From positions 10,906,932 through 10,970,931 of the forward strand of contig CM057138.1 in the NCBI GenBank assembly GCA_029964075.1: DNA of 64,000 nt, read 5' to 3'. The notes beneath the pieces are model-generated. The model worked only from the letters and a program-made list of their open reading frames with translations, did no database searches and had not been told where the DNA came from. The DNA comes from Patiria pectinifera (Eukaryota; Echinodermata; Asteroidea; Valvatida; Asterinidae). This document shows, in pieces, positions 306-63,500 of this stretch (position 1 is its first letter; each line of letters starts with the position of its first letter). The position numbers were made by a program, and so were the translations under genes.

Positions 306-492
306 CTGGACCGCAGTTTGGCTTTCGTGGTGAAATCCTCGTGTCCAACAAGCCACACCAAGCGTGGCTCTGGGCAAGCCTCTCGCACCGCGCACGTTAG
401 GTTGAGCAGCTGACCTTCACGCAAACTCACAACGCTCCCTGATAGATCGGCTCCTGATGTCCAGTCTGCAACAAAAGGCTCTGATCCCGGGC
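306..492 (-). CDS. Copy L: exon 9 equivalent (first half of Ig domain 3)
   Basis: 187 bp with intact acceptor and donor, same phases as M exon 9. It keeps LLNLTCAVRE and RLVWL. Differences from M include P for M near the start, C for Y after REA, and VG for IA. The extra cysteine is unpaired in the standard Ig fold. The next exon (10) should lie off the left edge of the window. Confidence 0.87.
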
Positions 493-1192
493 CTGTGAAA
501 ATGTACAGAGAGAAGAAGGTGTCCATCACAAGTCTGGGCAAAAGAACACCTCAAGCCATTTCACACGGCCAGTCACAAGTTAGTGATGAACAAACAAAGG
601 AATACCGGTACTTTGGTCACACCATTCATTTGAGTACTTGTGACTTGACTTGAAACTGAAGGATATATGGACTTATGATGGGCTCGTCCACTTCAATGGC
701 ACAGAGGCATAGTTGCAATGACTTCTGCTTACATGTATACTGACCTCATGCACAGTATTGGAAAATTAATACAAACCTTTTGATAATAATATTGAATTTT
801 GGGTAATTGGCGTTAGATACAAGCCATACATTTCATGCACGCATACATTTTGTTATCGTTTGCCTTTCACCTTTTTCAAAAGCATTATCAAGCATATTTA
901 TTTATAAAACCTTGTAAAATCAATCTCTAAAGCCTTTAACTATCATGAAATAAGCTGCAAATCTCTGTAAAGTTGCCTGAAACAGGCTATACGGACAACT
1001 ACTTATACTTAGAAGAGCAGGGAAAGAAACGGAAAAAAAAGTGATTGGATGTGACAGCTTGTGATGCTGATTCTGATTGGCTGAGGACCAAAAGTACATG
1101 TAGCTCTTCCAGTTCCAGGGGGACAGTTCAATATTGTAATTGGTATCCAATAAGGGATTCCCAAAATGTAACTCTAACAAATATGTTCTTAC

Positions 1193-1510
1193 TTTGAACA
1201 GTGAGCACTGTATCTGCTATGGCATCATCGTTTCCCCCTTCGTGGCCCACAATGCATCTGTACCTCCCCGCATCCTCAAATCGCACGCTCTCAATGACGA
1301 TCGAAACAGTCTGGTTCCTCTCCGTGACTACCAGTGACTGGCCTCTAGTCTGGTTCCCCTCTGTATCTGTTGGCCACTGGTTAATGGTCCGGTTCCCCAC
1401 CACCAAGGTCAGGGTACCAGCCTCTGGTTTGGTTCTGCAACGGAACTCCACGCTGTGTCCAAGGAGCACAGATTTGTTGCTAGGTGCTTTCAGGAAAGGA
1501 TCTGGAATAT
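1193..1510 (-). CDS. Copy L: exon 8 equivalent (complete Ig domain 2)
   Basis: 318 bp, open throughout, with the same splice sites and phases as M exon 8. Both cysteine signatures (VEFRCRTKP, GRYRCIVG) are intact. About 17 nucleotide differences from M give eight residue changes, so the coding frame is still preserved in this copy. Confidence 0.9.
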
Positions 1511-1605
1511 CTGTGGAAGATTTAAATTATTCTATGACAAAAAAATAATGAGAAATCACTCATCTACAGTACACCTTGCGTGACATGTACATACCAGTAT
1601 ATGTA

Positions 1606-2269: not shown

Positions 2270-2689
2270 TATATTATTTCAAACTTAAATGCAGTTTGCT
2301 GCAAAAAAATTAGTTCATCAACGTTTGTACATTTTCTGCCCCATATGTACATGTACTGGCACCTTATTTTTTTAAACCATCTGAACTGGATCTGCACCTG
2401 TGCAAGGAGGTATGGCAATCATCAATGACATGTTTGACAGATTTGTAGTAAAATTGTTCAAGAGAATGTACAGCATTTGCTTTTGCTGTAATTTTCAGAA
2501 ATAAATGGATTTGGAGGAATAGTATGTTAAAGCAAGTATTGTTACACTGACTTGTTTTACGTTTTGGGTTCGTAGATGCCGGAAAAACCAAACATGTTCT
2601 TGTAGTCAGTTCCCTGACCCCACTTAAGATTTATAGAAGCAATTTATAGACGTTGGGGAATTATAAGGTCAGAGAATCAGGCTAGCTGG

Positions 2690-3654: not shown

Positions 3655-3773
3655 TTGTTACAATAACTGTCACATTTTTGCTGTACAACTTGTTGTTGTC
3701 CACGACACGGCATGTGTAGACCCCGTTAACTTCTGGGCCTGTGGCTGTGACATTTGTATCCAGGTGAAACGGC
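3655..3773 (-). CDS. Copy L: exon 7 equivalent (second half of Ig domain 1)
   Basis: 119 bp with intact borders and the same frame as M exon 7, including GVYTCRVVDNN and two N-V-T sites. It is nearly identical to M. Its partner exon 6 at 14262-14440 is broken. Confidence 0.87.
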
Positions 3774-14261: not shown

Positions 14262-14440
14262 CTTGGGTGATATGGCACATCTTCTCAAAAGTGTGACTTG
14301 TTACTTCCAACTTGTGCCTATCCTGATCCCAAAACCACGGTGACGGCACCATCCCGGTATGCAGCGCATGTCAGGGTTACCCGACTCTCCGTAGTGTACA
14401 AATACGGTAGAAGGGCCTTCAAACACCAGCATTGGATCAA
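14262..14440 (-). pseudogene. Copy L: exon 6 equivalent, frame-broken
   Basis: Aligns with M exon 6 over its full length and keeps both splice sites, but is 179 rather than 172 bp. Relative to M it has an extra G near 14356, an extra C near 14381 and five extra bases (CAAAA) near 14287, a net +1 shift. Translation is correct to FVHYGES and then leaves the Ig frame. The flanking intron shows the same habit of single-base doublings compared with copy M, and a sequence gap lies 1 kb away, so low-quality consensus is as likely as true decay. Confidence 0.75.
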
Positions 14441-15461: not shown

Positions 15462-15961
15462 NNNNNNNNNNNNNNNNNNNNNNNNNNNNNNNNNNNNNNN
15501 NNNNNNNNNNNNNNNNNNNNNNNNNNNNNNNNNNNNNNNNNNNNNNNNNNNNNNNNNNNNNNNNNNNNNNNNNNNNNNNNNNNNNNNNNNNNNNNNNNNN
15601 NNNNNNNNNNNNNNNNNNNNNNNNNNNNNNNNNNNNNNNNNNNNNNNNNNNNNNNNNNNNNNNNNNNNNNNNNNNNNNNNNNNNNNNNNNNNNNNNNNNN
15701 NNNNNNNNNNNNNNNNNNNNNNNNNNNNNNNNNNNNNNNNNNNNNNNNNNNNNNNNNNNNNNNNNNNNNNNNNNNNNNNNNNNNNNNNNNNNNNNNNNNN
15801 NNNNNNNNNNNNNNNNNNNNNNNNNNNNNNNNNNNNNNNNNNNNNNNNNNNNNNNNNNNNNNNNNNNNNNNNNNNNNNNNNNNNNNNNNNNNNNNNNNNN
15901 NNNNNNNNNNNNNNNNNNNNNNNNNNNNNNNNNNNNNNNNNNNNNNNNNNNNNNNNNNNNN
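15462..15961. other. Assembly gap of exactly 500 N
   Basis: The run is exactly 500 bases, typical of a scaffold gap of nominal size. It falls precisely where the match between 138-15461 and 30461-43952 ends. True length unknown. Confidence 0.98.
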
Positions 15962-15963
15962 CA

Positions 15964-16392
15964 ATATATTAACAAGAGAGAGTGTGTGGTCCATACCTAC
16001 CATCCTACCGCAACAGGAAGAAAGCGAGGTGGACTCCGGGCCGGCAGAGGACCTACTGGCGGCTGCCATGACAGAGCTGACGGGTAGCCCACCCACGGAC
16101 CTCTCCAAGCCCCCTTTCATCAAGGGAAAGCCGACCAAGAGAAAGTTCAGCCCCGATCCCGACCAGCAGGAGAACGAGAAGAACGCCGCCCGATTCGAAA
16201 TTGGAGGTGAGCGTTATGCCTGTGTCAAACGTTTCAAGAACCGTGTCTACGTTAATATCAGAGAGTACTACTTCAACGAGGACAAGACTAAACTACTTGC
16301 GGGGAAAAAAAGGACTGAATCTGACATCCGCCGAATGGTACAAGTTGGTCGATCAAAGAAAACTCATTGCTGAAGCCATAGACATGATCTAG
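15964..16392 (+). pseudogene. PC4/SUB1-like domain ORF, 5' end in gap, frameshifted
   Basis: Open from the end of the N run. A charged, proline-rich linker with a basic patch (KPTKRKF) leads into a PC4-type single-stranded-DNA-binding domain: GERYACVKRF, YVNIREYY, a gap, then a downstream part (GLNLTSAEWYKL) that matches the conserved C-terminal half. The two halves are in different frames, and the break coincides with a run of seven A at about 16308, so it could be a sequencing indel or real decay. PC4 proteins bind ssDNA in transcription and repair. PC4 ORFs also occur in repetitive gene families and mobile elements of invertebrates, and I favour that here given the gap and duplication junction. 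Stop at 16390-16392. Confidence 0.6.
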
Positions 16393-16444
16393 ATCTTTAC
16401 AGTGTCACACGCTTATTTTCTATTCATTTTGAAATCATCTCGCA

Positions 16445-16921
16445 GACTCATCAAATCAGGACATCATCGACCGAAGGGCAAGGGTGAGAACACTCACCAA
16501 ACGCATCCTGACCAAACTCATCACGGACGAGATACTCCAGCTAGTGTACCATACGCAAAAACGACTGGGCTGCGAGGGATGTAAAAAGGACTGGCCGAGT
16601 CTTTTTGAGCACGCTTGCACATTTTTTGGTAGGAATCCCCAAAATCACATCGACGACTATATACCTTTGTACTTTGAGGAGGTGCTGGCTTCGCTGGACA
16701 AGAAACGAGTACGACCAATATTTCTAGCGGTCGCTAGCCTACTGGGAGTCGGTTTATTCATCGGAGAAGGAATGAACTTGGACACTGAATTGAGTGTTTT
16801 GATCGAAGACATTTTAAATGATTGGAAGGATGATTTAGAAGAAATCGGTTACTCCTTCTACTCGTCTTTGTTCGACAATACTACCGAACTCATTCAGAAC
16901 ACAGTAGATAACATAGAGTAA
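16445..16921 (+). CDS. Second ORF of the PC4 segment, unknown function
   Basis: Open frame of about 155 residues ending at TAA 16919-16921. No ATG starts it. A good acceptor (ATCATCTCGCAG) precedes 16445, so it may be a last exon. Visible features are a basic start (RRARVRTLTKR), a cysteine/histidine cluster (LGCEGC, then W-P-S, then H-A-C), one short hydrophobic stretch (PIFLAVASLLGVGLFIG) and an acidic C-terminal tail. I do not recognise the family. A polyadenylation signal AATAAA follows at 17020-17025. The single-locus arrangement with the PC4 ORF suggests one transcription unit or element. Confidence 0.5.
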   Translation, partial: DSSNQDIIDRRARVRTLTKRILTKLITDEILQLVYHTQKRLGCEGCKKDWPSLFEHACTFFGRNPQNHIDDYIPLYFEEVLASLDKKRVRPIFLAVASLLGVGLFIGEGMNLDTELSVLIEDILNDWKDDLEEIGYSFYSSLFDNTTELIQNTVDNIE

Positions 16922-21991: not shown

Positions 21992-24900
21992 CTGAAAATG
22001 AACACACAAAATGAGTCTTAGCGGTACATACGATCAGTTGCAGTTCCTTTTGTGTGAAGCAAAGTTAATAGTTCAAAATCTTAAGGCAAAGGATTGTGGA
22101 GGCCCGGTGTGGCACATGTGGCCCCCACAAATTTCCAGTGCCCCTTCCCTCCCGAGGTGTATTATTACCCTATCAAAAAAAAGGAAATTTGCATCGAGGC
22201 CATGCTTGGGTGGATTCGATACTCCAACAAAACTGGTGTCTGCTGCTCGTGTCAATAACTTACATGTATCAATTTCGAGAGTGTGAGTGACATGCACATG
22301 AGGGAGTTACCAACTCAGAAACAGATGGTCACTAAAATAGCCTTTTGAGGAATCTCATGTGACGTCAAAGGTCAGTGGTCACTCACACACCAGCCATATA
22401 TTGGACGTCTATTAAATAAGCCGCCATAGACCCCGGTGATAAATAGGCCCACTTCCGAAATTCTGAGGAAAAATACTCACAACTCTATAAGGTGTTTGAG
22501 TCACATATCAAATTAAAGCTTATTTCATCATCTTTTATGTCCTCAGTGTTCAATTTTTTTTTGTGGGGGGGGGGGTAACTAATGACTTTTGGGAGAAAAA
22601 TTCGGATATTGACAGTGACAAAAACTGCAGAAGATGCACATTACCCACAATGCAATGTTCTGTATGATTGATCAATCATGCTAGACTTCCAAAATGGCAG
22701 ATCTTGCACCGTTCACGGGACGTCTTGTGGATGCAAATCCTCAATTCCGCTGCAAATCACAGACTGTAAGACTTAATCCAATATGTAGCTGTCTAATGTT
22801 GGTTTCGGCTTGGGCTTTTGACAATTCATATCCTACAGTTAGTGCCAAACTCGTACATGTATATGAGGTATATTTGTTAGTACGAAAGCGCCAACTTCGT
22901 ACATGTACGAGGTAATGTAAACATGTTATCAGAAGGGGGCGCTCTCACTCTTTCTAATGGTACCATTTTCATGCATGTATGACCTGTATTTATTTTTTCA
23001 TTCGAGTTCTTGCGAGAGGGCGCAGCACTAAAACTAGTATTTCGGGCAAAAAGTGCAGAATTAACCTGTGTGCAGGACAGTGTTTCAGGGTGTATCACTA
23101 TGCATGTGACTACTATTGACGTTCCAATATACCAAGGATATACCAGAGAGCAACAACAACAAATTTAGTGAGTAAAACTTATTTCCTTTTTTTTTTTACA
23201 GAATTTTGAACAATTAACAAAAACGCTCGAAGTTGGGCACTTAAGGGTTAAACTTGTCAAATTTTTGCGGGCACTGAAAGAGTTAATATTCCCAGCCATA
23301 GTCAGAAATGTCAAATAATCAGACTGGTTCCTTTTTTAATTACCTCTCCCGGGTAGGAAGTTCTGATAATGCACGCACACATCACAGCCCCATTCCTTGA
23401 GCTTGGGTACCAGACAATGGATCACAAACTCTTCCTCGTCTCCACCGCCTTTGTAGGCCACAAAGACGTCATGTGACTTGCCTTCTGTTCAATGAAGTCA
23501 ATAAAACACAAGAAATTCTGACGATTTTATGTAATAGTCAAAGTTTCTTATCAAAGTTTTCATTATGCACTTCAACAAAACACATGGAAAGTAATGAAAG
23601 TATCTATTGAAGATTTAGACACTTTTGTGGAACTAGGATATGCGACATGAAAAGTCCCCCCCCCCCCGGGTCGCGTTACTGTTCGTCTTGGTCAGTCAGC
23701 AATTAGGGATACTATGTGACTGGCTCTACAAAAAAGGGTAGTCAGGCATTGCGAAAACGTGTGAGCTGCTGTTGCTAATGAGGACAAAATCATCAAAAAG
23801 TGATTCTGCATGTATATGATTTTTGGTTTGTTTGATATCTATATTTTCATTATCCATATTCACAAACATGGTTTATGTTAAAAAAAAAAATTGAAAAAAA
23901 AAAATTAGTTAATGCCTTTAACTTAATCATTTGTCAAAAAAAACCAAGATGAAATAATATTGATCATTATTTTCACAGGAAGTTGCGTGTTATTACTATG
24001 TTTAAACCAGGTAAGCTTTTTAACGGTACCCTTTGGTCCCTCAAATTTTGGATAGAGCTCTGCAAATGATTAACTACTCTACCTTTAAATGGACTCAATC
24101 CCAATTTTCTCAGGATACCTGTGAGTATTCCTCAAATAGCATCTTGAACTGAGGTGCTCTCTTGTGTTTATTTTTACCTTGATTTGATTTCTTTTTGTTC
24201 TTGAAGAAGAGGTCCTGTATCTTGCCGCGGTGTCGGTAGATGAGTATGGGCATGGCCACCATGAGAATAGCAAGGACTGACAGGGCTGATATCATGATAA
24301 CCCAGGGAACCTCCACGTCATCATCAGGGTCATCTGTAATGCAGAGAACAGCTATCATTCACTTTTGAATGAGACACCAAACAAACGAAATTGGTCTCTG
24401 TTTAGTCACGGAATATTTACATGTACAAATTTCACAATTATTTGTTGCCAAACAATAGTTCAGCTTCACACAGGCAGACTGGTTCCCATCCCTCAATGGC
24501 GGATCCAGGGGGCCAGTTGCAAGGGGACCATGTTAACCTACAAACAGAAACCAATATTTTTTTTTCAGTGAGTTGCAGATGCAATGAGTACACCGCCATC
24601 TTTTCCTCAAAAACATTCGCTAAAGTGGTCAGAAATTGCCTCAGATCGCACCACAGAGCATCGCGAATCCCAAAAAAAATTTTGGGAGACAATTTTTTTT
24701 TTGGCCCCCCCCCCAAAAATATTGTGTTCTGGATCCGCCCTTGTTTACATGTACTTCATCACAACAGTAAATCAGCTCACACAGGGTAGACTGGTTCCCA
24801 CCCCCTTTTGTGATTTAAAAATGTAGGGACCAGGAGCCAGTCGACTTTTTTCCAGAGAGTTGCAGATGGCCACGATAGAAACATTAAAATGTTCATTAAA

Positions 24901-42900: not shown

Positions 42901-45900
42901 TCCGTAGTGTACAAATACGGTAGAAGGGCCTTCAAACACCAGCATTGGATCAACTGTGTAGAAGAACAGTTAAGTGCAAAAGAGTCAAGTGCCAACTTCA
43001 AACTGCTGATTGTCGTGACTTAAAAGATATCTTGCAAATGATGAAAAAAAATTTACTTTAAGGACCATCAATGTATCAATATTACTTGATTATTCGATAT
43101 TATTTTGATATATCGATATCGCCGATAACAATTTTTTAATCTTATCAAAATATCGAAGTTTTCGATATTAGGAAAGATATCAAAAATATCGAAAATGCGT
43201 CAGATTATCGTCACAATAAATCTCCCATTTGTTCTTTTAGGCCAAAAAAAATAAGTCTCCTGTTTCTGGTATGCACGCGCGTCGCCGTAGCCATGCGCGT
43301 CGGCAAAATGAAAAAGTTTTTTTTTCAATGAAAGATGATGTCTCAAAACCACCAAACTCACTGGTTTGACTGGAATCCTGCTGCTGCACAATTTTAACGT
43401 GTTTTTAGATGGGGTTATGATCGAGAATAAGCTTTATGTGGCCTCTCTGGACTCCCATATATTTGCACTAAGTTTAGTCGGGCACCATTTTGCAGTCATC
43501 CGCCGACATTTGAAGCAAAAAAAAACAGGTAAAAAACAAACAAAAAAAAGCCGCGTCGCCGCACCACTTTTTGGGCAAGCTCCATACCAGAAACCAGAGA
43601 CTTTTTTTTTGGCCTAACTTTGTGTTTAACGTTTGCTGTATAATGAAATAAAACTCGCCGACAACTTGATGTGCTTTTAACTCAAAATAAAAATATCGCT
43701 CTGCGATTGCTTTCATTCGAGGCCTTCGCAATGTGAAACCTAAAAAAGCTTGTTTAAAAAGGCGAGTCTTCAGCACTGATTTAAAAACACCAACACTAGC
43801 AGCATTCCTAACATTGAGTGGAAGATTGTTCCAAAGGTGTGGTCCACTATACTCAAAAGGCTCAATCCCACTTGAGTAGCCTTACCACAACCTACAGGGT
43901 AGTTCAGAAAAATACCATCACCAGACCTGCGGATTACTCTGTATTTGTCAGTACCCATGCCGAAAAATGTTCGAGTATAAATCTCCCTGGTTTTTGCCTT
44001 GCCATACTGGTACCCTCAACACAACACCCAATGAGGACCCCCTCTTTCAAGTCTACAAGGCTGGACCTAGTGACAGGATGATTGATGACCTTGTGATAAC
44101 AGCAGCTACATGTATACTAATAACAATACACTTCAATTACAATACTTCAAGTGACAATACAAATCCTATGGGAGTTGGCCTGGTTCTGATCTTTGCCTCA
44201 GATATATATATTGGGTCAAAGGTTCAACCAGGGTTATAAAGGGGCACTCAGGATGATTTTTAGCTATGTCTCAATAGCGAACTTGTGGACAATGAATTTT
44301 TTTGACGTAAAAATGATGGAGTAATTAAAAATTATTTTTCAAATGTACTGACAATGTCAGTGTCGCACACCACAGAATTAATGGCTTATGGTAAAAGTAT
44401 CAGTATTGATAGCACACTGCTTGAAAGCCATAGGGACGAGTGTACCGGTAGCTGTCTGACTCATTCCCGGGCTTTAATTTCCAGCATTAAAATATGATTT
44501 TCTGCGCAACTGAATATCAATGACGACGACAGGTCTATAGTGATTACCCACCTTTGCTGCATGATCCTCCCTGTAGTCCTTTTGGGCAGACGCACTGACC
44601 AGTGAAAGGGTGGCACTCTATGCCAGGGGCGCATGAACACCGGTGGTCACAGTCCACACCGTACCTCGCATGAGGACAACCTTTCCCGGATTAAAAAGAC
44701 AAATGCGAAAAGATTTTACAATCATATTTGGCGAGATGAGTGCATTGCAAATCAAACACTTTGTGAGGCCTTTACTGCTAAAAATTGGTCTAGCAGAAGG
44801 GTTTCCTTTTGAATACAAACATTTGAATTATTAGAAGAATTAATTAATTTACTGAGGTTCTGTTTCCCAACATCGGATTTTTGTTCCTCCTTGATGGTTC
44901 CTAGCCTGAGGTTCCTACACTGATTTTTGGGTTCCCACAGTGAGACTTTGTTGTCTACATTGAGGATCTTGTTCCTACACCAAAGTTTTCGCTCCTTTAT
45001 CAAGGTTTTTTACTCTCACATTGAATTTCTGGTCATAAACATACACTGAGGTTCTAGTTTCTACACTGCTATTCTGGTTCCTTACTTCAGGTTGTAGTTT
45101 CTTTCATTAAGGATCTGGTTCTTAAATTGAGGATCTGAGTAATTTACCATGGGTTCTGGTTGCTATATGTACCTTGAGGTTCTGATTCCTACAGTTTCAT
45201 GTTCTTACACTGAGGTTGATATGTACATGTATGTACTAGTCTCATTATTGAATCACTGATTCCTATAATGAGGTGTTGTTTTTATTACAATGAGGGTTTT
45301 TTTTACAATGAGGTTCTAGTTCCTTCACTGGGGTTCTGGTTCCCACACAAATTTTCTGGTTCTCACACTAAAGTTCTGGTACAAGCTTTCATTGATAGGT
45401 TCTGGTAATTAGAAATTGACATTTTGGTTCCAACAGTGACACTTTGGTTTCTAATTGAGGTTCTTGTTGAAACACCAAAGTGTTTGCTCCTCCATTACGG
45501 TTTTGGTTCTAACACATGTAACAATGCAGTTCTAAATCCTGCATGCCCTACACTGAGGTTCTACACATAGTTTCAACATTGTGATTCAGGTTCCTACCTT
45601 AAGGTTGACTGATTATGGTATTTAGTGTAGGAACGTTTCTAACTAAGTTGAAGGTTCCTACACTGAGATTGTAGTTACACTAGCCTCACTGGTTCTGGTT
45701 CCTATACCGAAGCAATGATTCCTACACTTAAGTTTTGATTCCTACCTAAAATGAGTTTGTATTTTTTACAATGGGTTCTAGTTCTAGTTCAGGGGTTTTG
45801 GTTCCCACACCAATATTCTGGTTCCTTATACTAAAATGTTGGTTCTAGCTTTTATTGAAAATTAGATTCTATTTTTTCTGCGATGACGTTTTGCCTTCAA

Positions 45901-48900
45901 CACTGAGTACCTAAATCAAGGATCTTTTTCCGACGCTAAAATTCTGGTTTCGACACTGAGATTCTGGTGTCTACAGGCAAATGTACCTTTAAGTTCCATT
46001 GTTACTTCAGAGCTAACAAGAGGACCAGCAAGTAAACCAGCTTCTTCAGTGTCAGTAAACTTGATTTGGCAGTCCAACTGGAGCCGGCCCTCTGATGCAG
46101 CAATGTTATCCACTGTGAAGTTGGTTCTGATATCTGAAAATATGCGCGACGGATCATCTGTCCAGGGAAAGATAAATTACAGTAAATCCTTGTTTCATCA
46201 AACAATCATCACTCATCACTCAACAAAAGTTTCATCATTTCTTATTAAAAGTGTACAATGCTGAGATATACAAACAGCCTTATTAGGACTGGATAGCTTT
46301 GGACTTTGAGATGCACTTTCAGCGTATTAAGGCCCAAACTATTTTGTATAACATGGTTTCAGGGTGGATAGTCGATATTAGCCCCCAAGATATTGGAAGT
46401 TGACTACTGTGCTTTCCGAGGCGAAACTTCCAATACTGATGGGAGCTAAAATCGACTCCCCACCCGAAATAAACCATGTTTTATTTGTTTTAGTATATAT
46501 TTCATACATTGTACATATTTAGTTGCCAAATCTCGTCCAGCTCACCAGAAGAATATTGTTCAACATAAGAAAAAGTCCAGTTCTTTTGCAATACAGTAAC
46601 TCTTAACTGATTCTCAACCTCATTATGGACTTTTTTTTCTTTAGTAGGAGCAGGCCAGGATTCGAACCTGGGCCACAGTGGTGAGAGGCGAGTGCTTTAC
46701 GCAAAGCCACCCATGCCACCCTTAAATATGTAACCGATTGCAAACAAAATGTGGACTAACTAAATTTGGTAATTTGGGGAAAGTATTTGGTAAAAAAAAA
46801 GTCAGTTCTTTCCAATGATGGTCGGCCAACCATCATTAGAAAATTGATACAAAAATTCAAATTTTCTTGAAAAAATTACAACACCAGGTGCAATGATTTC
46901 ACAGGATGCGTTGGACTATGTATTTTTCAAATACAGTTTATTTCATAATAGTTTGGTAGTTTTTTTACGTTTGCAAATACTTAAAGCACAAATTTCACAC
47001 TAATGAAGAAAAAAAAAATTAGAGAGGGAGAAACAAATGAAACAATAAAAGAGTGGCATGGACGTGTACATACCCCCGGCATGTCGCCAGGACACCAAGA
47101 GGGGACTAGTAAATGGTCTGTGTCTTGAGATGTTGCCATTCATGAAGGTGCACTCAGCAAACGAGCCTAATAACATGTAGACGTCGATTGTGTAGGATAC
47201 AAAGATTCTCACAGCACCTGCAAAAAGTATACATGTATTAACTTATTAGAGTTACAAATTACAGGTGTAATACTTACTTGGCTGGTTTTAAACAAACATT
47301 TCAAACCGGCTGGGGGCCTGCATGGACGTGGATATTAAATGGCCCGAGCAGATCATAAGGCAAGGGTCATTATCCGACCAGGCCCCTAGCCGGCTTGAAA
47401 CGTGCATGTACGGTACAGGCCAAGCGCATACAAGTAGGCCTAATTATTCCCACTTTCAAAAAGTCAAAACACGCCAAAAATTCACGTCAGTCAAATGATT
47501 TAGTTCAAGTTAGGCCCGGCCCAGACACCATGCTACTGCCATGCCAAACTCAATTAATTTGGCGCTTTTAAACTTCAGCTCAGCGATAGCACGGTGTGTC
47601 TATGCCGTGTCAATGGTACGGTTTGTGCCTTGCGCGCTTAATGCTAAAAATCTCCTTTTTTGGGAAACTGGCACGCATGCGGCGTGCACTGCACCATTTG
47701 GCGCAGAACGCAGCAGCGTAGGAATGAAGTGTTTAAAACCACCCAGTGTTCCTCCAGCAGTTTAAGCTGACCCACAAGAACGGCTCTCGACCAATAGGAA
47801 TGGGTAAACTGTCTCAGGTATGAATATTCTGAACGATATTTATTCACTAATGAATCCAACAACTGATTTGCCTTAACCATGTTTACCATTGCAACTGTAG
47901 CCTAAATGCACGTAGGCCTACCGGGTATGTCTTTTTAATAAATATATTATTTAGTGTAAAATTGGTTTACATGTTACATGTCCAGAAATGGGACACTCAA
48001 TACTGTGTTCTGAAACTTAAAGATACATCAACTAATTTGCATGCAATTACCGTACAACAAAAAACAGACTGGCATCTGAAACAGCCAGTCCAACACCCCT
48101 TTAGTACTACATCAATCAACTGTGTCAAAAGAAGCATCTGGTACACGTACATTTTATATACCTACATGGGCACCAGCCCATGGGCTCTGTGCGCCAACAA
48201 AAGAGGGCGCCCTTTTACCTAGCAAAGATGTCCCATGGGTGGGACACATACAACACTGTACATTTCACTGGTTGACTACCGCACACCGTTCCTTGTGTGT
48301 GACGCACGCGCGTACACCAGGGGATTTGTACTATATGTCATGTATGTACACACAGTGGCCACGCTTCGCGGAAAAATATTGCAGTCAGGCAAGATCGTCG
48401 TTCGGTCACCCCCAAAAGTACTTTCTTTGCCGGTGAGCGGATAGTATTTGGCTTCAAATTGAAATCAATTGGCTTCACTCTCAGGAGCAAAATGTTGAAG
48501 AAAAGTCTCCTTTAAAACCTCAGTCTCCTTTAAAACCCCTTTAAAAGCTTGGCTGGTGAAATACTGATGAGGACCTTGTCTTTAATGCCTCATGAAAGAT
48601 TTGGGGAATTTTGTCAGCTCTGCATGTTTTTCTGCACTCAAGGTCCCTGCAGTCTGGGACTTGGGTAAGAATGTGATTAGATCCATGCTTTTAACTCTGT
48701 AATTTACACTTGCTTTACAATGTTAAAATGTTACAATGTACTTCTACTGAACTCACATGTGCCATTGATCTTTAACTCCACATTCTGCAGCGTGGCTTGG
48801 ACATCACCTGCGTTAGGAAGGTGCACCTCAACATCAAATAATTTGTGGTCCTCCTATTCAAGGAAAGAATAACCTCTATCACAAATTGAGACTTAACCAG

Positions 48901-50025
48901 AAAGTATAAGGTCACGCAGCGAGCTTCCGGAACCCTCGCGTGGCCCGGCTGCATTGGGTAGCCCTTTCACTTGATATAATATTGATTGGCAGAATGATTT
49001 CTAACTGTAACCACCCCAAGTAACACTCATGTTGGAATTGTCTCTTCAAGTAAAATGAGGAAAAATCACTTGGAGATAGATGGGTAATTTCGTTTACGAC
49101 CTTTCACTTCCAGCATTGTCGTTCCTAAATTACGTGTAGGTCTCCTTGTTCGTGCACGTTTGTTTTAATATCTTGTACAAGTTTGCAGGACAACGAGAAC
49201 ATGTATGTATGATTTACTTTATTTCAGATGATGGGTTCTAGATAAATCTGGCTTGACCAGATCATGGGTGCAGTCCTCTCAACAGTAAAATTTGTTCCTC
49301 CAAATACTAATGATTTCTCTAAGTCGATTCACACAATTTGAAAACCCTTTCCACCGTTCTGACCCCGGTTCGAATCCCACCTGGGCCAACATGTGGTTTG
49401 GGTTTTCAGTGCCTACCTGATTCTGTGGGTTTTCCCCAGAATATTCTTCTGGGGTTTTCCTCCCACCTCTAAAACTGTAAATTCTTCTCATTGTCTCCTC
49501 TCTACAGGTTTCATCAGGCTTGCGAGCTACAGTGACAGGGGTGTTTTTGAGGAATCCTTGGTTTCAGTACCAGAAATAAATAATCATAATATGGCTTATT
49601 CAATGACAGGACTGCTTGAAGACTAATCAAGAAAACTGACATTGAAATTTCAAAACAGCCCACTTGGGTTTTTTTTGGTCTTTGTCTTTTTTACACCTTA
49701 AAATTAATTTTCCAATCATGCCAATTCTCCAAAACCATTCTCCAAACCCATTCGATCACAATTAAAATGTCGTACACCAATTGGTCATAATCTTAATCAA
49801 AACAAAATATATCACTCAGGAACAGAATGTAAAGATCCTGAATTTAACATGTTCTGAGAAAAAAAGGAACTGGGGACTTACAGTGCTTGAATTTGTTGGA
49901 GGAGGGGGCTTGTAACACATCATGTTTTCATCATTGACGTTTCCATGGCAGGCTTGGCTCATAAACAGGACGACCACAATCACAGCCAAAGCAAATCCAT
50001 GTGCAGGTGTGAAGTACTGCTGCAT
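21582..50025 (-). CDS. Copy M: complete 15-exon EGF/Ig-TIR transmembrane receptor gene (867 aa)
   Basis: Fifteen exons on the minus strand join in one open frame: 50025-49882, 48853-48757, 47217-47074, 46157-45987, 44680-44552, 42953-42782, 32802-32684, 32283-31966, 30808-30622, 28634-28486, 27166-27010, 25149-25040, 24333-24178, 23484-23344 and 21991-21582. All introns are GT-AG and every phase matches, giving 2604 coding bases. Layout by residue: signal peptide 1-28, unclassified extracellular region 29-185, EGF-like repeat 186-228, four Ig domains 229-632, transmembrane helix about 641-663, TIR domain about 689-830, acidic tail to 867. Many N-x-S/T sites lie in the ectodomain. The TIR has DVFVAY (box 1), FLPG (box 2) and FW at 822-823 (box 3). 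A cell-surface receptor signalling through TIR adaptors is inferred from family knowledge; the ligand is unknown. Tie-like ectodomains normally carry a kinase, which is absent here. The exon chain is strongly supported, the function less so. Confidence 0.9.
21992..23343. other. Intron 14 of copy M, no gene seen
   Basis: Shared with 61363-62743. Contains short palindromes such as GTACATGTACGAGG and a G homopolymer near 22565. No supported feature. Confidence 0.55.
23344..23484 (-). CDS. M exon 14: TIR domain, N-terminal part
   Basis: Codes residues 685-731: HDVFVAYKG is TIR box 1, followed by the first helix (EEEFVIHCLVPKLKEWG) and the strand and BB loop leading into box 2 (CVHYQNFLPG). The RD pair that usually precedes the loop in TLRs is Q-N here, while P-G is kept. 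The few base differences from copy R in this exon all appear synonymous, which suggests purifying selection. Confidence 0.94.
23485..24177. other. Intron 13 of copy M, nothing recognised
   Basis: AT-rich with a C run near 23659. Partly different from the matching intron 62885-63344 of copy R. Confidence 0.5.
24178..24333 (-). CDS. M exon 13: juxtamembrane and transmembrane segment
   Basis: Codes residues 633-684. An acidic stretch (DDPDDDVEV) precedes a hydrophobic helix of about 23 residues (WVIMISALSVLAILMVAM plus PILIY), then a basic cytoplasmic stop-transfer run (RHRGK, KNKKK). The orientation is therefore extracellular N terminus and cytoplasmic C terminus. I use the GTAAAA donor after TCAAG, because only this phase 1 end opens the TIR frame of exon 14. 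Residues are identical in copy R. Confidence 0.92.
24494..24743. mobile_element. MITE with GGCGGATCCAG ends
   Basis: CAATGGCGGATCCAG at one end and the inverse CTGGATCCGCCCTTG at the other, in intron 12. Absent from copy R. No clear target duplication. Confidence 0.65.
25040..25149 (-). CDS. M exon 12: second half of Ig domain 4
   Basis: Codes residues 596-632 with MATLTCSATNEYG, the second cysteine and the conserved N-x-x-G turn, then AVIKVF, the G strand leading to the membrane. Phase 2 in, phase 1 out. It joins exon 13 in frame at a shared aspartate codon. Confidence 0.88.
25256..25870 (+). mobile_element. LINE fragment: ORF2 C terminus and 3' tail
   Basis: The frame ends LLPPTRRESHDRNLRNAH..FKNSPIPYFISLLNK then stop, the typical C-terminal end of a non-LTR reverse transcriptase ORF. 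The 3' UTR ends near AATAAAATATACC. 5'-truncated and partly frameshifted; lies antisense in intron 11 of copy M. Confidence 0.72.
26040..26640 (-). pseudogene. LINE reverse-transcriptase C-terminal remnant
   Basis: Minus-strand translation across several frames gives WQDRISDTKVLQ, RAQLRWTG, RLPKRLLYGEL and LKSCDISPDT, the conserved region after the RT domain of many invertebrate LINEs. Stops and frameshifts show that it is dead. Confidence 0.75.
27010..27166 (-). CDS. M exon 11: first half of Ig domain 4
   Basis: Codes residues 544-596 with PLFTCWAPAKPP (first cysteine) and YNWTL (core tryptophan, within an N-W-T site). Phase 1 in, phase 2 out (donor GTAAGT). GC content is clearly higher than in the surrounding intron, as expected of coding sequence. 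Confidence 0.88.
27200..27515. repeat. Interspersed repeat shared with 48165-48440
   Basis: Both contain ATGGGCTC(C/T)GTGCG, GCAC(G/A)..TTCCTTGTGTG and ACACCAGGGGATTT in the same order. Family unknown. Confidence 0.65.
27932..28461. mobile_element. MITE with TTAA target, second full copy
   Basis: 530 bp with the same ends (TTAAAGATACAGTCCATCAT and its inverse), in intron 10 of copy M about 25 bp from exon 10. Confidence 0.87.
28486..28634 (-). CDS. M exon 10: second half of Ig domain 3
   Basis: Codes residues 494-543. GKTISCVSDVP supplies the second cysteine, although the usual Y-x-C tyrosine is replaced (I-S-C). Phase 2 in, phase 1 out. The donor lies only about 25 bp from the end of a TTAA-flanked MITE (27932-28461). 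Confidence 0.87.
28738..29148 (-). mobile_element. tRNA-derived SINE, inverted copy
   Basis: Starts on the plus strand with ATAATAATAATATCGGAGTC (tail with ATT microsatellite) and ends with the complement of the tRNA-like head. Lies in intron 9 of copy M. Confidence 0.85.
29410..29823. mobile_element. Probable MITE, inverted ends ACCCGTTCTGTCAAA
   Basis: The two ends match over about 30 bp when inverted (GTTCTGTCAAA..TTCTGGGCA). In intron 9 of copy M. No target duplication seen. Confidence 0.55.
30453..30497. mobile_element. TTAA MITE remnant
   Basis: Only 45 bp remain, TTAAAGCTATA joined to CAAATGATGGACTATATCTT. It is the deleted counterpart of the element at 1-182. Confidence 0.75.
30622..30808 (-). 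CDS. M exon 9: first half of Ig domain 3
   Basis: Codes residues 432-494 with LLNLTCAVREAYPEP (first cysteine) and RLVWL (core tryptophan). Phase 1 in, phase 2 out. The copy L exon 306-492 differs at four residues, one of them an extra cysteine. Confidence 0.9.
31003..31484. mobile_element. MITE with 8-bp target duplication, copy M only
   Basis: 482 bp with inverted ends CATAGAGCT..ATATTAAATTAC, flanked by GCTCGACC (30995-31002) and GCTCAACC (31485-31492). Copy L is uninterrupted here near 684. Fits hAT by TSD length. Confidence 0.83.
31966..32283 (-). CDS. M exon 8: complete Ig domain 2
   Basis: Codes residues 326-431 as a whole Ig domain in one phase 1-1 exon (318 bp). VEFRCRTKP and DAGRYRCIVG supply the disulphide cysteines and the D-x-G-x-Y-x-C signature. 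Four N-x-S/T sites are present (NKS, NRT, NQT, NQT). Unlike the other Ig domains of this gene it has no internal intron. Eight of 106 residues differ from the copy L exon. Confidence 0.92.
32684..32802 (-). CDS. M exon 7: second half of Ig domain 1
   Basis: Codes residues 286-325 with GVYTCRVVDNN, the Y-x-C signature of the F strand that closes Ig domain 1, and two N-V-T glycosylation sites. Phase 2 in, phase 1 out. The copy L equivalent is 3655-3773. Confidence 0.88.
32918..33189. mobile_element. PIF/Harbinger-like MITE, copy M only
   Basis: 272 bp with ends GGCCCAATTTCACGGCGCT and AGCGCCGTG-AATTGGGCC, flanked by CAG on both sides. Copy L shows the empty site (TACAGTCCAGACG) near 3877-3889. 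A 3-bp duplication fits PIF/Harbinger. Confidence 0.82.
33190..35164. other. Intron 6 of copy M, no gene seen
   Basis: Contains a C run near 33576-33586 and ordinary intron sequence. 33840-34170 has no clear match in copy L. No supported feature. Confidence 0.5.
35165..35900. repeat. Minisatellite, paralogue of 6010-6560
   Basis: Same unit (TTCATTATGTGATGTCCTCA), longer than the left array and interrupted by TTGACAATCCA spacers. Confidence 0.88.
37401..38209. mobile_element. Foldback element, uninterrupted copy
   Basis: 809 bp with GGGTCATTCCACCAGGTTGG at one end and its inverse at the other. Long imperfect arms (about 37401-37615 against 37985-38209) can fold together, and short palindromes mark both arm tips. 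No ORF. Confidence 0.78.
38977..39250. repeat. Local tandem duplication, paralogue of 10543-10835
   Basis: Two diverged units containing GGGTTCCCAGCAATTTATGA. The start of the first unit is deleted relative to the left copy. Confidence 0.78.
39896..39952. repeat. Perfect 57-bp palindrome, paralogous copy
   Basis: Same arms and centre as 11525-11581, within a 269-bp block (39727-39995) without any difference from 11356-11624. Confidence 0.93.
40857..41093. mobile_element. MITE with GGGTCATTC inverted ends, paralogous copy
   Basis: Same element as 12476-12711 at the homologous position, so the insertion predates the duplication. Confidence 0.78.
41608..41736. mobile_element. Small inverted-repeat insertion, copy M only
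   Basis: GGTTCATACTTC and GCGAAGCGAAATT near one end are mirrored by AATTTCGCTTCGC and GTGAAGTATGA at the other. Not present at the matching site near 13200. Confidence 0.6.
42782..42953 (-). CDS. M exon 6: first half of Ig domain 1
   Basis: Codes residues 229-286 with VTLTCAAYG (B strand, first cysteine) and LWFWDQD (core tryptophan of the C strand). Phase 1 in, phase 2 out. The second half of the domain is in exon 7, almost 10 kb away. The paralogous exon in copy L (14262-14440) is frame-broken. Confidence 0.88.
43238..43612. mobile_element. 380-bp MITE family, full copy
   Basis: Full-length copy with both GGCC ends, homologous in position to 14737-15112. Flanks TTA and TAA suggest a TA target. 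Confidence 0.82.
43953..44551. other. Intron 5 of copy M beyond block A, nothing recognised
   Basis: Unique sequence between the end of the duplicated block and exon 5. No supported feature. Confidence 0.5.
44552..44680 (-). CDS. M exon 5: EGF-like repeat
   Basis: Codes residues 186-228 as a symmetric phase 1-1 module with eight cysteines spaced as in Tie, MEGF and scavenger-receptor EGF repeats (C-x8/9-C-x3-C-x-C-x5-C-x6-C-x-C-x8-C), including the characteristic TGQCVC and GGSC segments. A single repeat sits between the N-terminal region and the first Ig domain. Tie receptors have three tandem EGF repeats, so this is a reduced or independently acquired version. Role: extracellular spacer or ligand contact. 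Confidence 0.88.
44840..45975. repeat. Degenerate minisatellite, unit about 20-25 bp (ACTGAGGTTCTGGTTCCTAC)
   Basis: More than 1.1 kb of variants of GAGGTTCTGGTTCCTACACT fills most of intron 4 and runs to within about 12 bp of exon 4. Confidence 0.88.
45987..46157 (-). CDS. M exon 4: N-terminal extracellular region, two possible acceptors
   Basis: Codes residues 129-185, phase 1 to phase 1, with an N-F-T site and RLQLDCQIKF resembling the B strand and first cysteine of an Ig-like sandwich. Two acceptors are usable in the same frame: after CCTGGACAG (start 46157) and after ATTTTCAG (start 46133). The second would drop eight residues. I chose the longer form. The exon ends where a long GGTTCT-rich minisatellite begins. 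Confidence 0.78.
46640..46722 (-). mobile_element. tRNA-like SINE head
   Basis: Minus strand reads as a tRNA-like unit with box A (TGGCTTTGCGTAAAGCA) and box B (GGTTCGAATCC). Stem pairing is incomplete, so I regard it as a SINE head, not a tRNA gene. Confidence 0.6.
46725..46925. repeat. Interspersed repeat like 2700-2905
   Basis: Shares GGTCGGCCAACCAT and AACACCAGGTGCAATGAT with the left repeat, in the same orientation. Confidence 0.6.
47074..47217 (-). CDS. M exon 3: N-terminal extracellular region
   Basis: Codes residues 81-128, phase 1 to phase 1. The acceptor is a good pyrimidine tract (CTTTTTGCAG) and the donor is GTATGT. It contains AECTFMNGN with one cysteine that may pair with the cysteine at the exon 2/3 join. 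The exon continues the unclassified N-terminal region and is kept because it is the only open frame that links exons 2 and 4. Confidence 0.8.
47218..48164. other. Intron 2 of copy M, nothing recognised
   Basis: No repeat or ORF with support between exon 3 and the repeat at 48165. Confidence 0.5.
48165..48440. repeat. Interspersed repeat shared with 27200-27515
   Basis: Second copy of the family, in intron 2 of copy M. Confidence 0.65.
48757..48853 (-). CDS. M exon 2: N-terminal extracellular region
   Basis: Codes residues 49-80, entering in phase 0 and leaving in phase 1 (donor GTGAGT). The segment looks like beta-strand material (FDVEVHLPNAG) and ends with an N-G-T site followed by a cysteine that is completed in the next exon. 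I do not recognise a domain; it may be the first part of a divergent Ig or Tie-like N-terminal module. Confidence 0.8.
49330..49500 (+). mobile_element. SINE fragment
   Basis: Box B-like CCCCGGTTCGAATCCCACCT followed by GGGTTTTCCCCAGAATATTC and TTTTCCTCCCACCTCTAAAA, a tail common to SINEs of marine invertebrates. Confidence 0.65.
49882..50025 (-). CDS. M exon 1: start codon and signal peptide
   Basis: Codes residues 1-48. The ATG at 50025-50023 is followed by a hydrophobic core (ALAVIVVVLF) and a likely signal peptidase site after ACHG (residue 28), so this start fits a secreted or membrane protein. The donor at 49882 is GTAAGT, phase 0. An acceptor (TTGTTGCAG) lies just upstream with exon sequence beginning at 50035, so the 5' UTR is probably split by an intron and the promoter lies further upstream. 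The mature end carries a proline run and an N-S-S glycosylation site. Confidence 0.85.
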
Positions 50026-54379: not shown

Positions 54380-54381
54380 TA

Positions 54382-59912: not shown

Positions 59913-60895
59913 CATCCACCTGGGACCGTTAAAGCAAAAAAGGAACACCAAGAACAAAATTACTCTCCCGGTGCTCATCCACAAATTCAACTTGTAGGCT
60001 ATTCCAAACCTAAAACACCGTGTTTTTCTTGGGCGTCTGCAACCCTCTGAAAAAAAAGGTATTATATTTTAGGAAAAAACAGAACCCCCTTGCTAGCAGG
60101 CTGGTTCCCAGTCCATACATTATTGATACTGACTGTGAGACGGGAACCAACCTACCCAGCGAGAATGGAATTATTGTCGGGCCGCGACTAATTAGTAAAG
60201 TAATCAAATTCACTATAAATTAAACGTCGGCCAATTTTTTTTTTTTTTTTTCTTGTTAAGATGTCTCAATCAAAAGTGAATAAAATTTGTATTGTCATGT
60301 AGAACATTAATTAATTTTTTGGGGATGAAACTCAAAAAGCGATCACGGGAAATGCAATTTTATTTTAAAAGTAATAAATATACAAATATACATGTACATG
60401 TCATAAGAAATACTACAAGAATACAATGTAGATGTCGTGTGGAACTGTTTAAAAAGTCATACAAATATACAATCAGAAGACAAGTCTTAGTACTTATCAA
60501 ATATTAACACCAGTCATTTGCTCTTCAGGGCTTCAAAATACAGATATTATGCAAATCAAAAGAACAAAACTGTTTTTGGCCAAGGCCAAGATTTGAAGGC
60601 TTTTTCCCTCAAAATGAATTTTCAATTCACATGTAATATGTTATTTCAATTTCTTCTTTTTTTCCATCTATTGCATCTCTATGCACAACAGAGGTCCACC
60701 TAATTTGGGCAAAAAAAAAAATGGTCCAGCTCTGGTCACACCAAAATTCTGAATTCATGCAGCAATTTGTTTTTAAAATTTTCTTCTTTTTTGGGGGGCT
60801 GTTTTTTTTTAATTTTTTTTTACAGACAGGGTGAATACTATTTTTTTTTGTGTAACGGACGGGCTGCAAATTATTCATATATTTATGAATATATT

Positions 60896-60956
60896 TTCAA
60901 CAATAATTACGCCAGTCATTTTTTGGAAAGCTGCAAATGATGGACTCTAGCTTTAA
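60896..60956. mobile_element. TTAA MITE remnant at the end of copy R
   Basis: About 60 bp of the right end survive next to the stop codon of copy R. The rest, with neighbouring sequence, was deleted compared with 20655-21525. Confidence 0.78.
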
Positions 60957-61362
60957 ATGAGATAAACGTTGTCATCCCTTTCATCATCTGCCATGTTATT
61001 ATTGACCGCATCCAACTCCCCTGTCATGCCTGTACTCTCTTCCTTGTTCACGTTGAACTCCGTTTCCACAGCCCTCTTCAACAGCTTCCAGAATTCATCG
61101 GTCTGCCCTTGATGACTGGTTCCGGTCGGCCACGGGATGAACGAGACGGTATCCAGAAGATTGCGCATGCTGTGGCACAGCTCCTCATGGCGGATATCAC
61201 GGAACATCAGCGGGATGATGAAGTTAGTCTGGTTCCGCAGCATCTCGTCCACGGCGCACAAGAACTCGAAGTAGCACCACTCGCTGGCCATGAAGTCCGG
61301 GGACAAGACCAGGAGCGTCTTGCGGCAGCTGCCGACGGCAGCCATGATGTTGTCAACAATTT
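60953..61362 (-). CDS. R exon 15: TIR C-terminal part and stop
   Basis: 410 bp, the same as in copy M. SEWCYFEF, FIIPLMF and the box 3 FW are present, as is the DDNVYLI tail. The stop again falls in the TTAA of a MITE end, although here only about 60 bp of that element remain. Confidence 0.93.
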
Positions 61363-63500
61363 CTGAAAATGAACACACAAAATGAGTCTTAGCGGTACAT
61401 ACGATCAGTTGCAGTTCCTTTTGTGTGAAGCAAAGTTAATAGTTCAAAATCTTAAGGCAAAGGATTGTGGAGGCCCGGTGTGGCACATGTGGCCCCCACA
61501 AATTTCCAGTGCCCCCTTCCCCCTCCCCGAGGTGTATTATTACCCTATCAAAAAAAAAGGAAATTTGCATCGAGGCCATGCTTGGGTGGATTCGATACTC
61601 CAACAAAACTGGTGTCTGCTGCTCGTTTCAATAACTTACATGTATCAATTTCGAGAGTGTGAGTGACATGCACAAGAGGGAGTTACCAACTCAGAAACAG
61701 ATGGTCACTAGAATAGCCTATTGAGGAATCTCACGTGACGTCACAGGTCAGTGGTCACTCACACACCAGCCATATATTGGACGTCTATTAAATAAGCCGC
61801 CATAGACCCCGGTGATAAATAGGCCCACTTCCGAAATTCTGAGGAAAAATACTCACAACTCTATAAGGTGTTTGAGTCACATATCAAATTAAAGCTTATT
61901 TCATCATCTTTCATGTCCTCAGTGTTCAAATTTTTTTTGGGGGGGGGGGTAACTAATGACTTTTGGGAGAAAGATCAGATATTGACAGTGACAAAAACTG
62001 CAGAACATGCACATTACCCACAATGCAATGTTCTGTATGATTGATCAAGCATGCTAGACGTCCAAAATAGCAGATCTTGCACCGTTCACGGGACGTCTTG
62101 TGGATGCAAATCCTCAATTCCGCTGCAAATCACAGACTGTAAGACTTAATCCAATATATAGCTGTCTAATGTTGGTTTCAGCTTGGACTTCTGCACATTC
62201 TACAGTTAGTGCCAAACTCGTACATGTATGAGGTATATTTGTTAGTACGAAAGCGCCAACCTCGTACATGTACGAGGTAATGTTCATGATTAAAATCGCC
62301 AAACCTCGCACATGTACGAGGTAGAGTAAACATGTTATCAAAAGGGGGCGCTCTCACTCTTTCTAATGGTACCATTTTCATGCATGTACGACCTTTATTT
62401 ATTTATTTTATTCGAGTTCTTGCGAGAGGGCGCAGTACTAAAACTCGTATTTTTGGCAAAAAGTGCGGAATTCCCCTGTGTGCAGGACAGTGTTTCAGGG
62501 TGTATCACTATGTATTTGACTACTATTGACTTTCCAATATACCAAGGATATACCACAACAACAACAAATTTAGTGAGTAAAACTTATTTACTTTTTTTTT
62601 TACAGAATTTTGAACAATTACCAAAAACTCTCGAAGTTGGGCATTTAAGGGTTAACAATTTCGCGGGCACTGAAAGAATTAATATTCCCAGCAATAGTCA
62701 GAAATGTCAAAGGCATAATCAGACTGGTTCCTTTTTTAATTACCTCTCCCGGGTAGGAAGTTCTGATAATGCACACAGACATCACAGCCCCACTCCTTGA
62801 GCTTGGGTACCAGACAATGGATCACAAACTCTTCCTCGTCCCCACCGCCTTTGTAGGCCACAAAGACGTCATGTGACTTGCCCTCTGTTCAGTGAAGTCA
62901 ATAAAACATAAGAAATTTTGATGATTTTATGTAACACTAGGTTATGTTATCAAAGTTTTCATTATCCACTTCAACAAAACACATGGAAAGTAATGAAAGT
63001 ATCTATTGAATATTTAGACACTTTTGTGGAACTACGATGCATAGCGATCTCTGTGGGATATCACGTACGTGACATCCCACAGAGAGTGTGCTATGACTTT
63101 TTATAAGCTTAACACGTAATCGTTCTAGGCCAGTGAAAATACAGTATTCAAGACAGAGGTATAACAATACCAGGTGAGCTTTTTAACAGTATTTTGGTCA
63201 GTAAAATTTTGGATATAGCTCTGCAAATGGTTAGCTACTCTACCTTTAAATGGACTTTACTTTTTTCCCCATTTTGTCATGATACCTGTGAGTATTCCTC
63301 CAATAGCATCTTGAATTGAGTTGCTCTTTTGTTTGTATTTTTACCTTGATTTGATTTCTTTTTGTTCTTGAAGAAGAGGTCCTGTATCTTGCCGCGGTGT
63401 CGGTAGATGAGTATGGGCATGGCCACCATGAGAATAGCAAGGACTGACAGGGCTGATATCATGATAACCCAGGGAACCTCCACGTCATCATCAGGGTCAT
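60953..63500 (-). CDS. Copy R: 3' end of a third receptor gene (TM and TIR exons)
   Basis: Three exons match M exons 13-15 in length, phase and splice sites: 63500-63345 (transmembrane), 62884-62744 (TIR part 1) and 61362-60953 (TIR part 2 with stop). The upstream Ig exons lie beyond the right edge. TM and TIR part 1 encode the same residues as copy M. TIR part 2 differs at two positions (H for N in DIR-x-EEL, E for Q in NKE-x-ST). The gene appears functional as far as it is visible. Confidence 0.9.
62744..62884 (-). CDS. R exon 14: TIR N-terminal part
   Basis: 141 bp with box 1 (HDVFVAYKG) and the FLPG loop. The few base differences from M exon 14 that I can see are all synonymous. Confidence 0.92.
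63040..63095. repeat. Near-perfect 56-bp palindrome
   Basis: CTCTGTGGGATATCACGT opposite ACGTGACATCCCACAGAG, with CATAG / CTATG at the outer ends. In intron 13 of copy R, absent from copy M. Confidence 0.8.
63345..63500 (-). CDS. R exon 13: transmembrane segment
   Basis: 156 bp encoding the acidic juxtamembrane run, the hydrophobic helix and the basic KNKKK run, residue-identical to copy M. Acceptor TGCATTACAG and donor GTAAAA are conserved. Confidence 0.9.

What the first reader, a model, noticed from the sequence alone, without database searches (positions are those of the whole stretch)
306..63500. Tandem array of EGF/Ig-TIR receptors, one of them complete
Three same-strand copies occur in one 64-kb window. 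The middle copy gives an uninterrupted 867-residue protein from 15 exons with matching phases. Combining a Tie-style EGF repeat, four Ig domains and a TIR domain is not one of the standard TLR, IL-1R or Tie layouts. Seen directly: exons and motifs. Inferred: an expanding innate immune receptor family.
Basis: partly seen in the sequence, partly recalled or inferred. Interest (0 to 1): 0.8.

Follow-up and report, generated by a model that had tools for sequence, protein, structure and literature searches.

The report
Sea star EGF-Ig-TIR receptor gene cluster
A bat star genome holds a cluster of closely similar genes for a cell-surface receptor that joins a Tie-like and immunoglobulin outer part to the kind of inner signalling domain used by Toll-like immune receptors, a combination we did not find described.

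Summary
On the minus strand, 15 exons (window 50025 to 21582) give one uninterrupted 867-residue protein with GT-AG introns and matching phases. Layout: signal-like segment, ~137-residue N-terminal module, Tie-like EGF, four Ig domains, one TM segment, TIR. The window also holds E6-E9 of a damaged copy and E13-E15 of a third.

The 10-kb intron 6 is not a gene boundary. It cuts one Ig domain in half, and the matching introns are 518 and 2,065 bp in two paralogues (36% identity) elsewhere in the genome with the same domain order.

The array has six TIR-bearing copies: three complete, one seen from E4 to E15 (5' end not read), one with E7-E15 only, one damaged. An exact chromosome-length match points to Patiria pectinifera. 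Its 5.16% heterozygosity means some copies may be alleles, but two complete copies and one partial lie on one gap-free stretch.

The TIR scores closest to TLR1/6/2 and is under purifying selection; the N-terminal module changes faster between copies. Ig-TIR and EGF-TIR proteins are each in print; the combination was not found in nine searches. Expression and immune function are inferred. New variant of a known kind.

The parts
49882..50025 (-). C2 exon 1: start codon, hydrophobic signal-like segment
   Evidence: hydropathy peak residues 8-26
48757..48853 (-). C2 exon 2: N-terminal module
47074..47217 (-). C2 exon 3: N-terminal module
45987..46157 (-). C2 exon 4: N-terminal module
   Evidence: candidate counterparts in both diverged paralogues
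44552..44680 (-). C2 exon 5: Tie-like EGF module
   Evidence: PDB profile hit Tie2 1.4e-8; four identical copies found in the genome
42782..42953 (-). C2 exon 6: first half of Ig1
   Evidence: Pfam Ig_2 238-324 spans E6/E7
32684..32802 (-). C2 exon 7: second half of Ig1, after the 9,979-bp intron 6
31966..32283 (-). C2 exon 8: Ig2
30622..30808 (-). C2 exon 9: first half of Ig3
28486..28634 (-). C2 exon 10: second half of Ig3
27010..27166 (-). C2 exon 11: first half of Ig4
25040..25149 (-). C2 exon 12: second half of Ig4
24178..24333 (-). C2 exon 13: transmembrane segment (residues 644-662) and juxtamembrane
23344..23484 (-). C2 exon 14: TIR, first part, including the LPG loop
21582..21991 (-). 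C2 exon 15: TIR, second part, tail and stop
14262..14440 (-). C1 exon 6, 179 bp against 172, out of frame with a stop (damaged copy)
3655..3773 (-). C1 exon 7
1193..1510 (-). C1 exon 8 (Ig2)
306..492 (-). C1 exon 9; the rest of C1 lies left of the window, E11 not found
63345..63500 (-). C3 exon 13 (TM); E1-E12 lie right of the window
62744..62884 (-). C3 exon 14 (TIR first part)
60953..61362 (-). C3 exon 15 (TIR second part, stop)
15462..15961 (.). 500-N run, read as an assembly gap, between the C1 fragment and C2
   Evidence: a second run of exactly 500 N at C10:11044062-11044561

Best explanation
[quoted passage not shown] Shown: the gene model, domain order, tandem copies, two diverged family members, and purifying selection on the TIR. 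Inferred: the gene arose by exon shuffling (apart from splits inside Ig1, Ig3 and Ig4, the modules from E3 to TM are bounded by phase-1 introns). The ectodomain binds an unknown ligand, dimerisation brings TIRs together, and they recruit MyD88-like adaptors to drive NF-kB-type innate or inflammatory signalling. The N-terminal module differs most between copies, as a ligand-contact region might. Real and translated as one chain: about 0.9. Signals in the TLR/IL-1R manner: about 0.75. Role in immunity rather than development: about 0.6.
For: 15-exon, 867-aa open model with matching phases. C3 and C5 also give 867 aa with no internal stop. C6 shows E4-E15 in order with no stop in the matched pieces (splice sites not checked). 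Paralogues at C21:11.549-11.563 Mb and C10:12.289-12.305 Mb keep EGF, four Ig, TM and split TIR in the same order at 36% identity. dN/dS over E1-15 is 0.29-0.35 for the three full pairs; for the TIR 0 to 0.13 in five of six pairs and 0.26 in the sixth. TIR in C2/C3: 2 nonsynonymous against 7 synonymous changes, p = 4e-4 against neutrality; N-terminal exons 15 against 2, different from the TIR at p = 0.0016. TIR closest to TLR1 (1e-21), sharing the NFxPG loop; as profile, TLR1 3e-29 against IL1RAP 1.7e-18.
Against: No transcript, protein or functional data. The N-terminal dN/dS above 1 is not different from neutrality (p = 0.39), and the third full pair, C3/C5, gives 0.90 (contrast with its TIR not tested). 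The EGF is below Pfam's cut-off. In the two paralogues I chose splice sites under the condition that phases match C2, so equal phases there are not an independent result. One of six copies is damaged and one lacks E1-E6 in the assembly. Tie, DCC and FGFR-like ectodomain matches are as typical of developmental receptors as of immune ones.
Confidence: 0.62

Rival explanations
1. Much of the array is uncollapsed allelic sequence: haplotype contigs joined end to end by Hi-C scaffolding, so the apparent six copies overstate a smaller cluster.
For: Published heterozygosity is 5.16% (PMC10511450, passages), while whole-gene mismatch between complete copies is 3.5-3.8%. The two truncated copies C1 and C4 each sit beside a 500-N run. 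The start of the stretch after the second run matches the 3' flank of C4 at 98.9% over 4.2 kb.
Against: C2, C3 and C4 lie on one stretch without N, C10:10922893-11044061. The four EGF exons found in the assembly are all in the array.
Confidence: 0.35
2. The model fuses two genes, an EGF/N-terminal protein and an Ig-TIR receptor, across a long intron.
For: Intron 6 is 9,979 bp and there are no transcripts.
Against: Intron 6 cuts an Ig domain. In the two paralogues EGF-to-Ig1 is 457 and 1,633 bp and the intron-6 counterpart 518 and 2,065 bp.
Confidence: 0.04
3. The receptor is real but works in adhesion, development or wound repair, or as a decoy or brake like SIGIRR, rather than as a microbe sensor.
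For: Ig matches are to SYG-2, Robo, DSCAM, nectin and FGFR, and the EGF to Tie2. IL-1-like molecules have not been identified in invertebrates (PMC9020223, passages).
Against: The TIR matches TLR1/6/2 best, with the loop motif kept; recent duplication is common among immune receptors (general knowledge).
Confidence: 0.3

Closest known systems
Ig-TIR (IL-1R-like) receptors of invertebrates
   Same: Ig ectodomain, TM, cytoplasmic TIR. Reported for sponges, with a TLR-homologous TIR and Ig in place of LRR (PMC7308585, PMC6208332, PMC6043800; passages), sea anemones (PMC5094078), oyster as a legend category (PMC4346834), sea urchin when SMART is used (PMC2575513), and generally Cnidaria to Deuterostomia (PMC9020223)
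   Different: In the passages read, no EGF and no Tie-like N-terminal module is attributed to these proteins
EGF-TIR proteins of oyster and Aplysia
   Same: EGF plus TIR (PMC4346834 legend, PMC9334734 table with two Aplysia genes; passages)
   Different: Listed as a category apart from IG-TIR; whether any also bears Ig domains was not seen
Tie2 (angiopoietin-1 receptor)
   Same: EGF of the same kind right after the N-terminal module; the 3 PDB sequences matched at E <= 0.01 are all Tie2 (best 1.4e-8)
   Different: One EGF where the Tie2 chain matches in three; four Ig follow; TIR instead of a tyrosine kinase (Tie layout otherwise recalled)
Toll-like receptors 1, 2 and 6
   Same: Closest TIR by sequence
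   Different: No LRR family matched; TIR split by a phase-1 intron
Vertebrate IL-1R family
   Same: Ig ectodomain plus TIR
   Different: Four Ig plus EGF and N-terminal module; TIR scores weaker against IL1RAP and SIGIRR than against TLR1

Membership tests
Ig-TIR receptors | Ig ectodomain, single TM, C-terminal cytoplasmic TIR | tested here: met
   Ig and TIR in 3 of 3 members; TM
Toll-like receptors | TIR domain | tested here: met
   PF01582 1.8e-17; best PDB match TLR1
Toll-like receptors | leucine-rich-repeat ectodomain | tested here: not met
   No LRR among the 14 Pfam families matched by the 3 members at E <= 0.1
IL-1 receptor family | Ig-only ectodomain, usually three Ig (recalled) | tested here: not met
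   Four Ig plus EGF and N-terminal module
IL-1 receptor family | common ancestry of the TIR with vertebrate IL-1Rs | tested here: inconclusive
   Scores favour TLR1 over IL1RAP; no tree was built
Tie receptors | Tie-type EGF after an N-terminal Ig-like part | tested here: inconclusive
   EGF met; whether the N-terminal module is an Ig fold was not tested
Tie receptors | cytoplasmic tyrosine kinase | tested here: not met
   TIR in its place; no kinase family matched
Any of these, as working receptors | expression and TIR-dependent signalling | not testable with these tools
   No RNA or protein data held

The most novel reading that the evidence does not exclude
A separate receptor class in echinoderms: a Tie-like ligand-binding head and four Ig domains built by phase-1 exon shuffling onto a TLR-type TIR, independent of the vertebrate IL-1 receptors, with its outermost module diversifying among fresh tandem copies while the signalling domain is held fixed.
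Probability: 0.3. Interest if true: 0.7.

Novelty: new variant of a known kind. Interest (0 to 1): 0.5.

Why it matters
It shows a TLR-type signalling domain wired to an EGF/Ig ectodomain that matches no standard layout, in a phylum for which IL-1-like activity has been described but no such molecule characterised (PMC9020223, passages). It bears on whether Ig-TIR receptors arose once or several times, an open question in print (PMC5094078, passages). It also gives concrete candidate genes in the bat star.

Tried and rejected
Gene split at intron 6: rejected. A SAM-like reading of the ORF at window 53624-53902: no Pfam match at E <= 0.01. Intronless Ig-TIR genes, which I suspected at C12 and C21: the one locus fetched (C12:8539400-8541400) reads by eye as an LRR-TIR Toll-like frame, not Ig-TIR; the others were not read. 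Mitochondrial COX1 as a taxon marker: no match in the assembly. A strict splice-site scan gave 57 candidates and was not used; a looser scan kept segments open in at least three copies and printed 8, of which 7 are exons of the model (E1, E2, E6, E7, E9, E10, E14) and one, near window 19.7 kb, is not. Searches stopped with script errors and one search gave wrong exon ends; searches replaced them. A genome search with exon 1 did not complete. A TIR tree with vertebrate IL-1Rs was not built because those sequences were not held.
Full report
WHAT WAS CHECKED. I rebuilt the middle copy from the sequence and obtained the same result: 15 exons on the minus strand between window 50025 and 21582, AG/GT at each of 14 introns, phases matching, 867 residues and a single terminal stop. 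Pfam gives Ig (four stretches of Ig_3, 7e-25) and TIR (1.8e-17); the EGF is only a sub-threshold laminin-EGF match. Hydropathy shows a signal-like segment at residues 8-26 and one TM segment at 644-662; 15 N-glycosylation sequons are present, 14 of them before the TM segment and one in the TIR.

SOURCE. The window is C10:10906932-10970931 of a 613.5-Mb assembly in 1,020 contigs. Contig C14 is 54,886,374 bp, exactly the longest pseudochromosome published for Patiria pectinifera, the blue bat star (PMC10511450, passages read). The paper gives 615 Mb, 22 pseudochromosomes plus 1,458 small scaffolds, and 5.16% heterozygosity; total and scaffold count differ somewhat from the assembly held, perhaps because of a trimmed deposit.

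THE ARRAY. The TIR profile search lists 25 TIR matches in this genome (lower bound), six of them near-identical second TIR exons on the minus strand of C10 between 10.90 and 11.19 Mb. I read 10857000-11120899 and 11186000-11215999; 11120900-11185999 was not read. Copy C1 (left edge of the window and beyond) has E6-E10 and E12-E15; its E6 is 179 bp against 172 and out of frame, and E11 and E1-E5 were not found. C2 (window), C3 (10967884-10998803) and C5 (11051029-11077078) are complete, 867 aa each. In C3 the E3 end first printed was one base off; with the end at the GT donor the frame is open. C4 has E7-E15 with splice sites and frames intact and no E1-E6. C6 shows E4-E15 in order, without stops in the matched pieces; its splice sites were not checked and its E1-E3 lie beyond what I read. 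A whole-genome search with the C2 protein scored 52 of 350 candidates, all 52 in this array. A DNA search with the EGF exon found four copies, all 100% identical, in C2, C3, C5 and C6; no further copy, for C1 or C4, turned up on small contigs or elsewhere.

ALLELES OR COPIES. Whole-gene mismatch between C2, C3 and C5 is 3.5-3.8% over about 20 kb aligned, within the published heterozygosity. Two 500-N runs break the part of the array that I read first, and the truncated copies C1 and C4 each sit next to one. C1/C2 and C4/C5 could therefore be allelic ends of neighbouring contigs. The copies are mosaic: over E15-E13, C1 differs from C3 by 1.7% but from C2 by 4.2%. But C2, C3 and C4 (E7-E15) lie on one stretch without N (10922893-11044061), so tandem duplication itself is well supported for three copies; six is an upper reading.

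TWO DIVERGED RELATIVES. The TIR search also gave two single matches with the same split TIR, at C21:11.549 Mb and C10:12.304 Mb. Their upstream sequence holds, in order, EGF, Ig1 first half, Ig2, Ig3, Ig4 and both TIR parts by tblastn, and Ig1 second half, TM and N-terminal candidates by reading. Gene models: C21 covers E3-E15 counterparts (803 aa) and C10b E4-E15 (771 aa as printed; 750 aa with the second-ranked E5 acceptor, which the aligned protein uses), with no internal stop as printed. I required the phases of C2 when choosing splice sites, so the finding is that fitting GT-AG sites exist for each exon taken, not that phases were recovered blind. Ig3 and Ig4 are each one exon there, unlike in the array. 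Their 5' ends were not found. Identity to C2 is 36% for both; by domain, EGF 51-56%, TIR 46-48%, Ig 30-40%, N-terminal module 23-29%. A whole-genome search with the C10b protein (60 of 287 candidates scored) found these two loci, the six array copies, and other TIR or Ig frames, of which the Toll-like frames on C789 and C5 score above the array's second TIR exons. The list is a lower bound. Thus the same layout exists in three lineages within one genome.

INTRON 6. Intron 6 is 9,979 bp and falls at residue 286, inside the Pfam Ig_2 match 238-324. The matching introns in the relatives are 518 and 2,065 bp. A split gene is very unlikely.

DOMAIN KINSHIP. A profile of the N-terminal module plus EGF matches three PDB sequences at E <= 0.01, all Tie2 (best whole-sequence E 1.4e-8, best single stretch 7.7e-6); the match covers the EGF and the strand before it, not the whole module. 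The Ig region is closest to SYG-2, then Robo, nectin and FGFR-type chains. The TIR is closest to TLR1, TLR6 and TLR2, with IL1RAP and SIGIRR weaker; it shares the NFxPG loop of TLR1. I built no tree, so ancestry of the TIR is not settled.

SELECTION. Over the whole coding sequence dN/dS is 0.29-0.35 for the three full pairs. The TIR gives 0 to 0.13 in five of six pairs and 0.26 in the sixth; the N-terminal exons E1-E4 give 2.25, 1.94 and 0.90 in three pairs, with only two synonymous changes each. N-terminal against TIR differs in the two pairs tested (C2/C3 p = 0.0016; C2/C5 p = 0.0002); C3/C5 was not tested. The N-terminal excess in C2/C3 is not different from neutrality (p = 0.39). So the signalling end is constrained and the outer end is either loosely constrained or diversifying. 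These pairs share copies and may be gene-converted, so they are not independent.

HOW IT PROBABLY WORKS. As a type I receptor: an outer Tie-like/Ig stalk binds a ligand, dimerisation pairs the TIRs, and MyD88-type adaptors signal. All steps after the gene model are inference from the families named; I did not look for MyD88 in this genome. Each module from E3 through the TM exon is bounded by phase-1 introns in C2, which fits assembly by exon shuffling.

WHAT IS IN PRINT. Nine full-text searches on the subject (a tenth was for the organism) led to Ig-TIR receptors in sponges, sea anemones, oyster and sea urchin and EGF-TIR proteins in oyster and Aplysia (passages), but showed no receptor with EGF, Ig and TIR together in listings or passages seen. 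The library holds open-licence papers only, and gene annotations of other echinoderms were not searched, so this is not proof of absence. One paper counts 28 TIR combinations in amphioxus, 20 of them specific to it; its list was not read and could include this layout.

VERDICT. Observation confirmed and strengthened; interpretation partly supported; a new variant of a known kind.

Noticed in passing
window 15962-16373 (+) and 16433-16921 (+): Directly beside the 500-N gap, an ORF with a PC4 (p15 coactivator) domain, Pfam 3.1e-8, followed by a 162-aa ORF with no Pfam match; not part of the receptor gene, possibly from a mobile element.
   Followed up: partly
window about 27935-28465 and 21020-21580 (-), also near 30500: By eye, repeated ~550-bp stretches beginning like 'taaagctatagtccatcatttg' and ending in its near reverse complement, as in a miniature inverted-repeat element; one begins directly at the stop codon of exon 15.
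   Followed up: no
window 53624-53902 (-): ORF with a SAM-like string (by eye) upstream of the gene, found at two places of the array; no Pfam match.
   Followed up: partly
window about 44850-45950 (-): Intron 4 holds a long degenerate run of 'ggaaccagaacctcagtgta'-like units (by eye).
   Followed up: no
L001-L004 (C789, C5, C14, C6) and L036 (C12): Toll-like frames of the same genome carry the TIR in one long open LRR-like frame, unlike the split TIR of this family.
   Followed up: partly
L006, C857:24559-24834: A TIR ORF behind a very acidic stretch near the end of a 25-kb contig; no Ig seen in the ORF.
   Followed up: no
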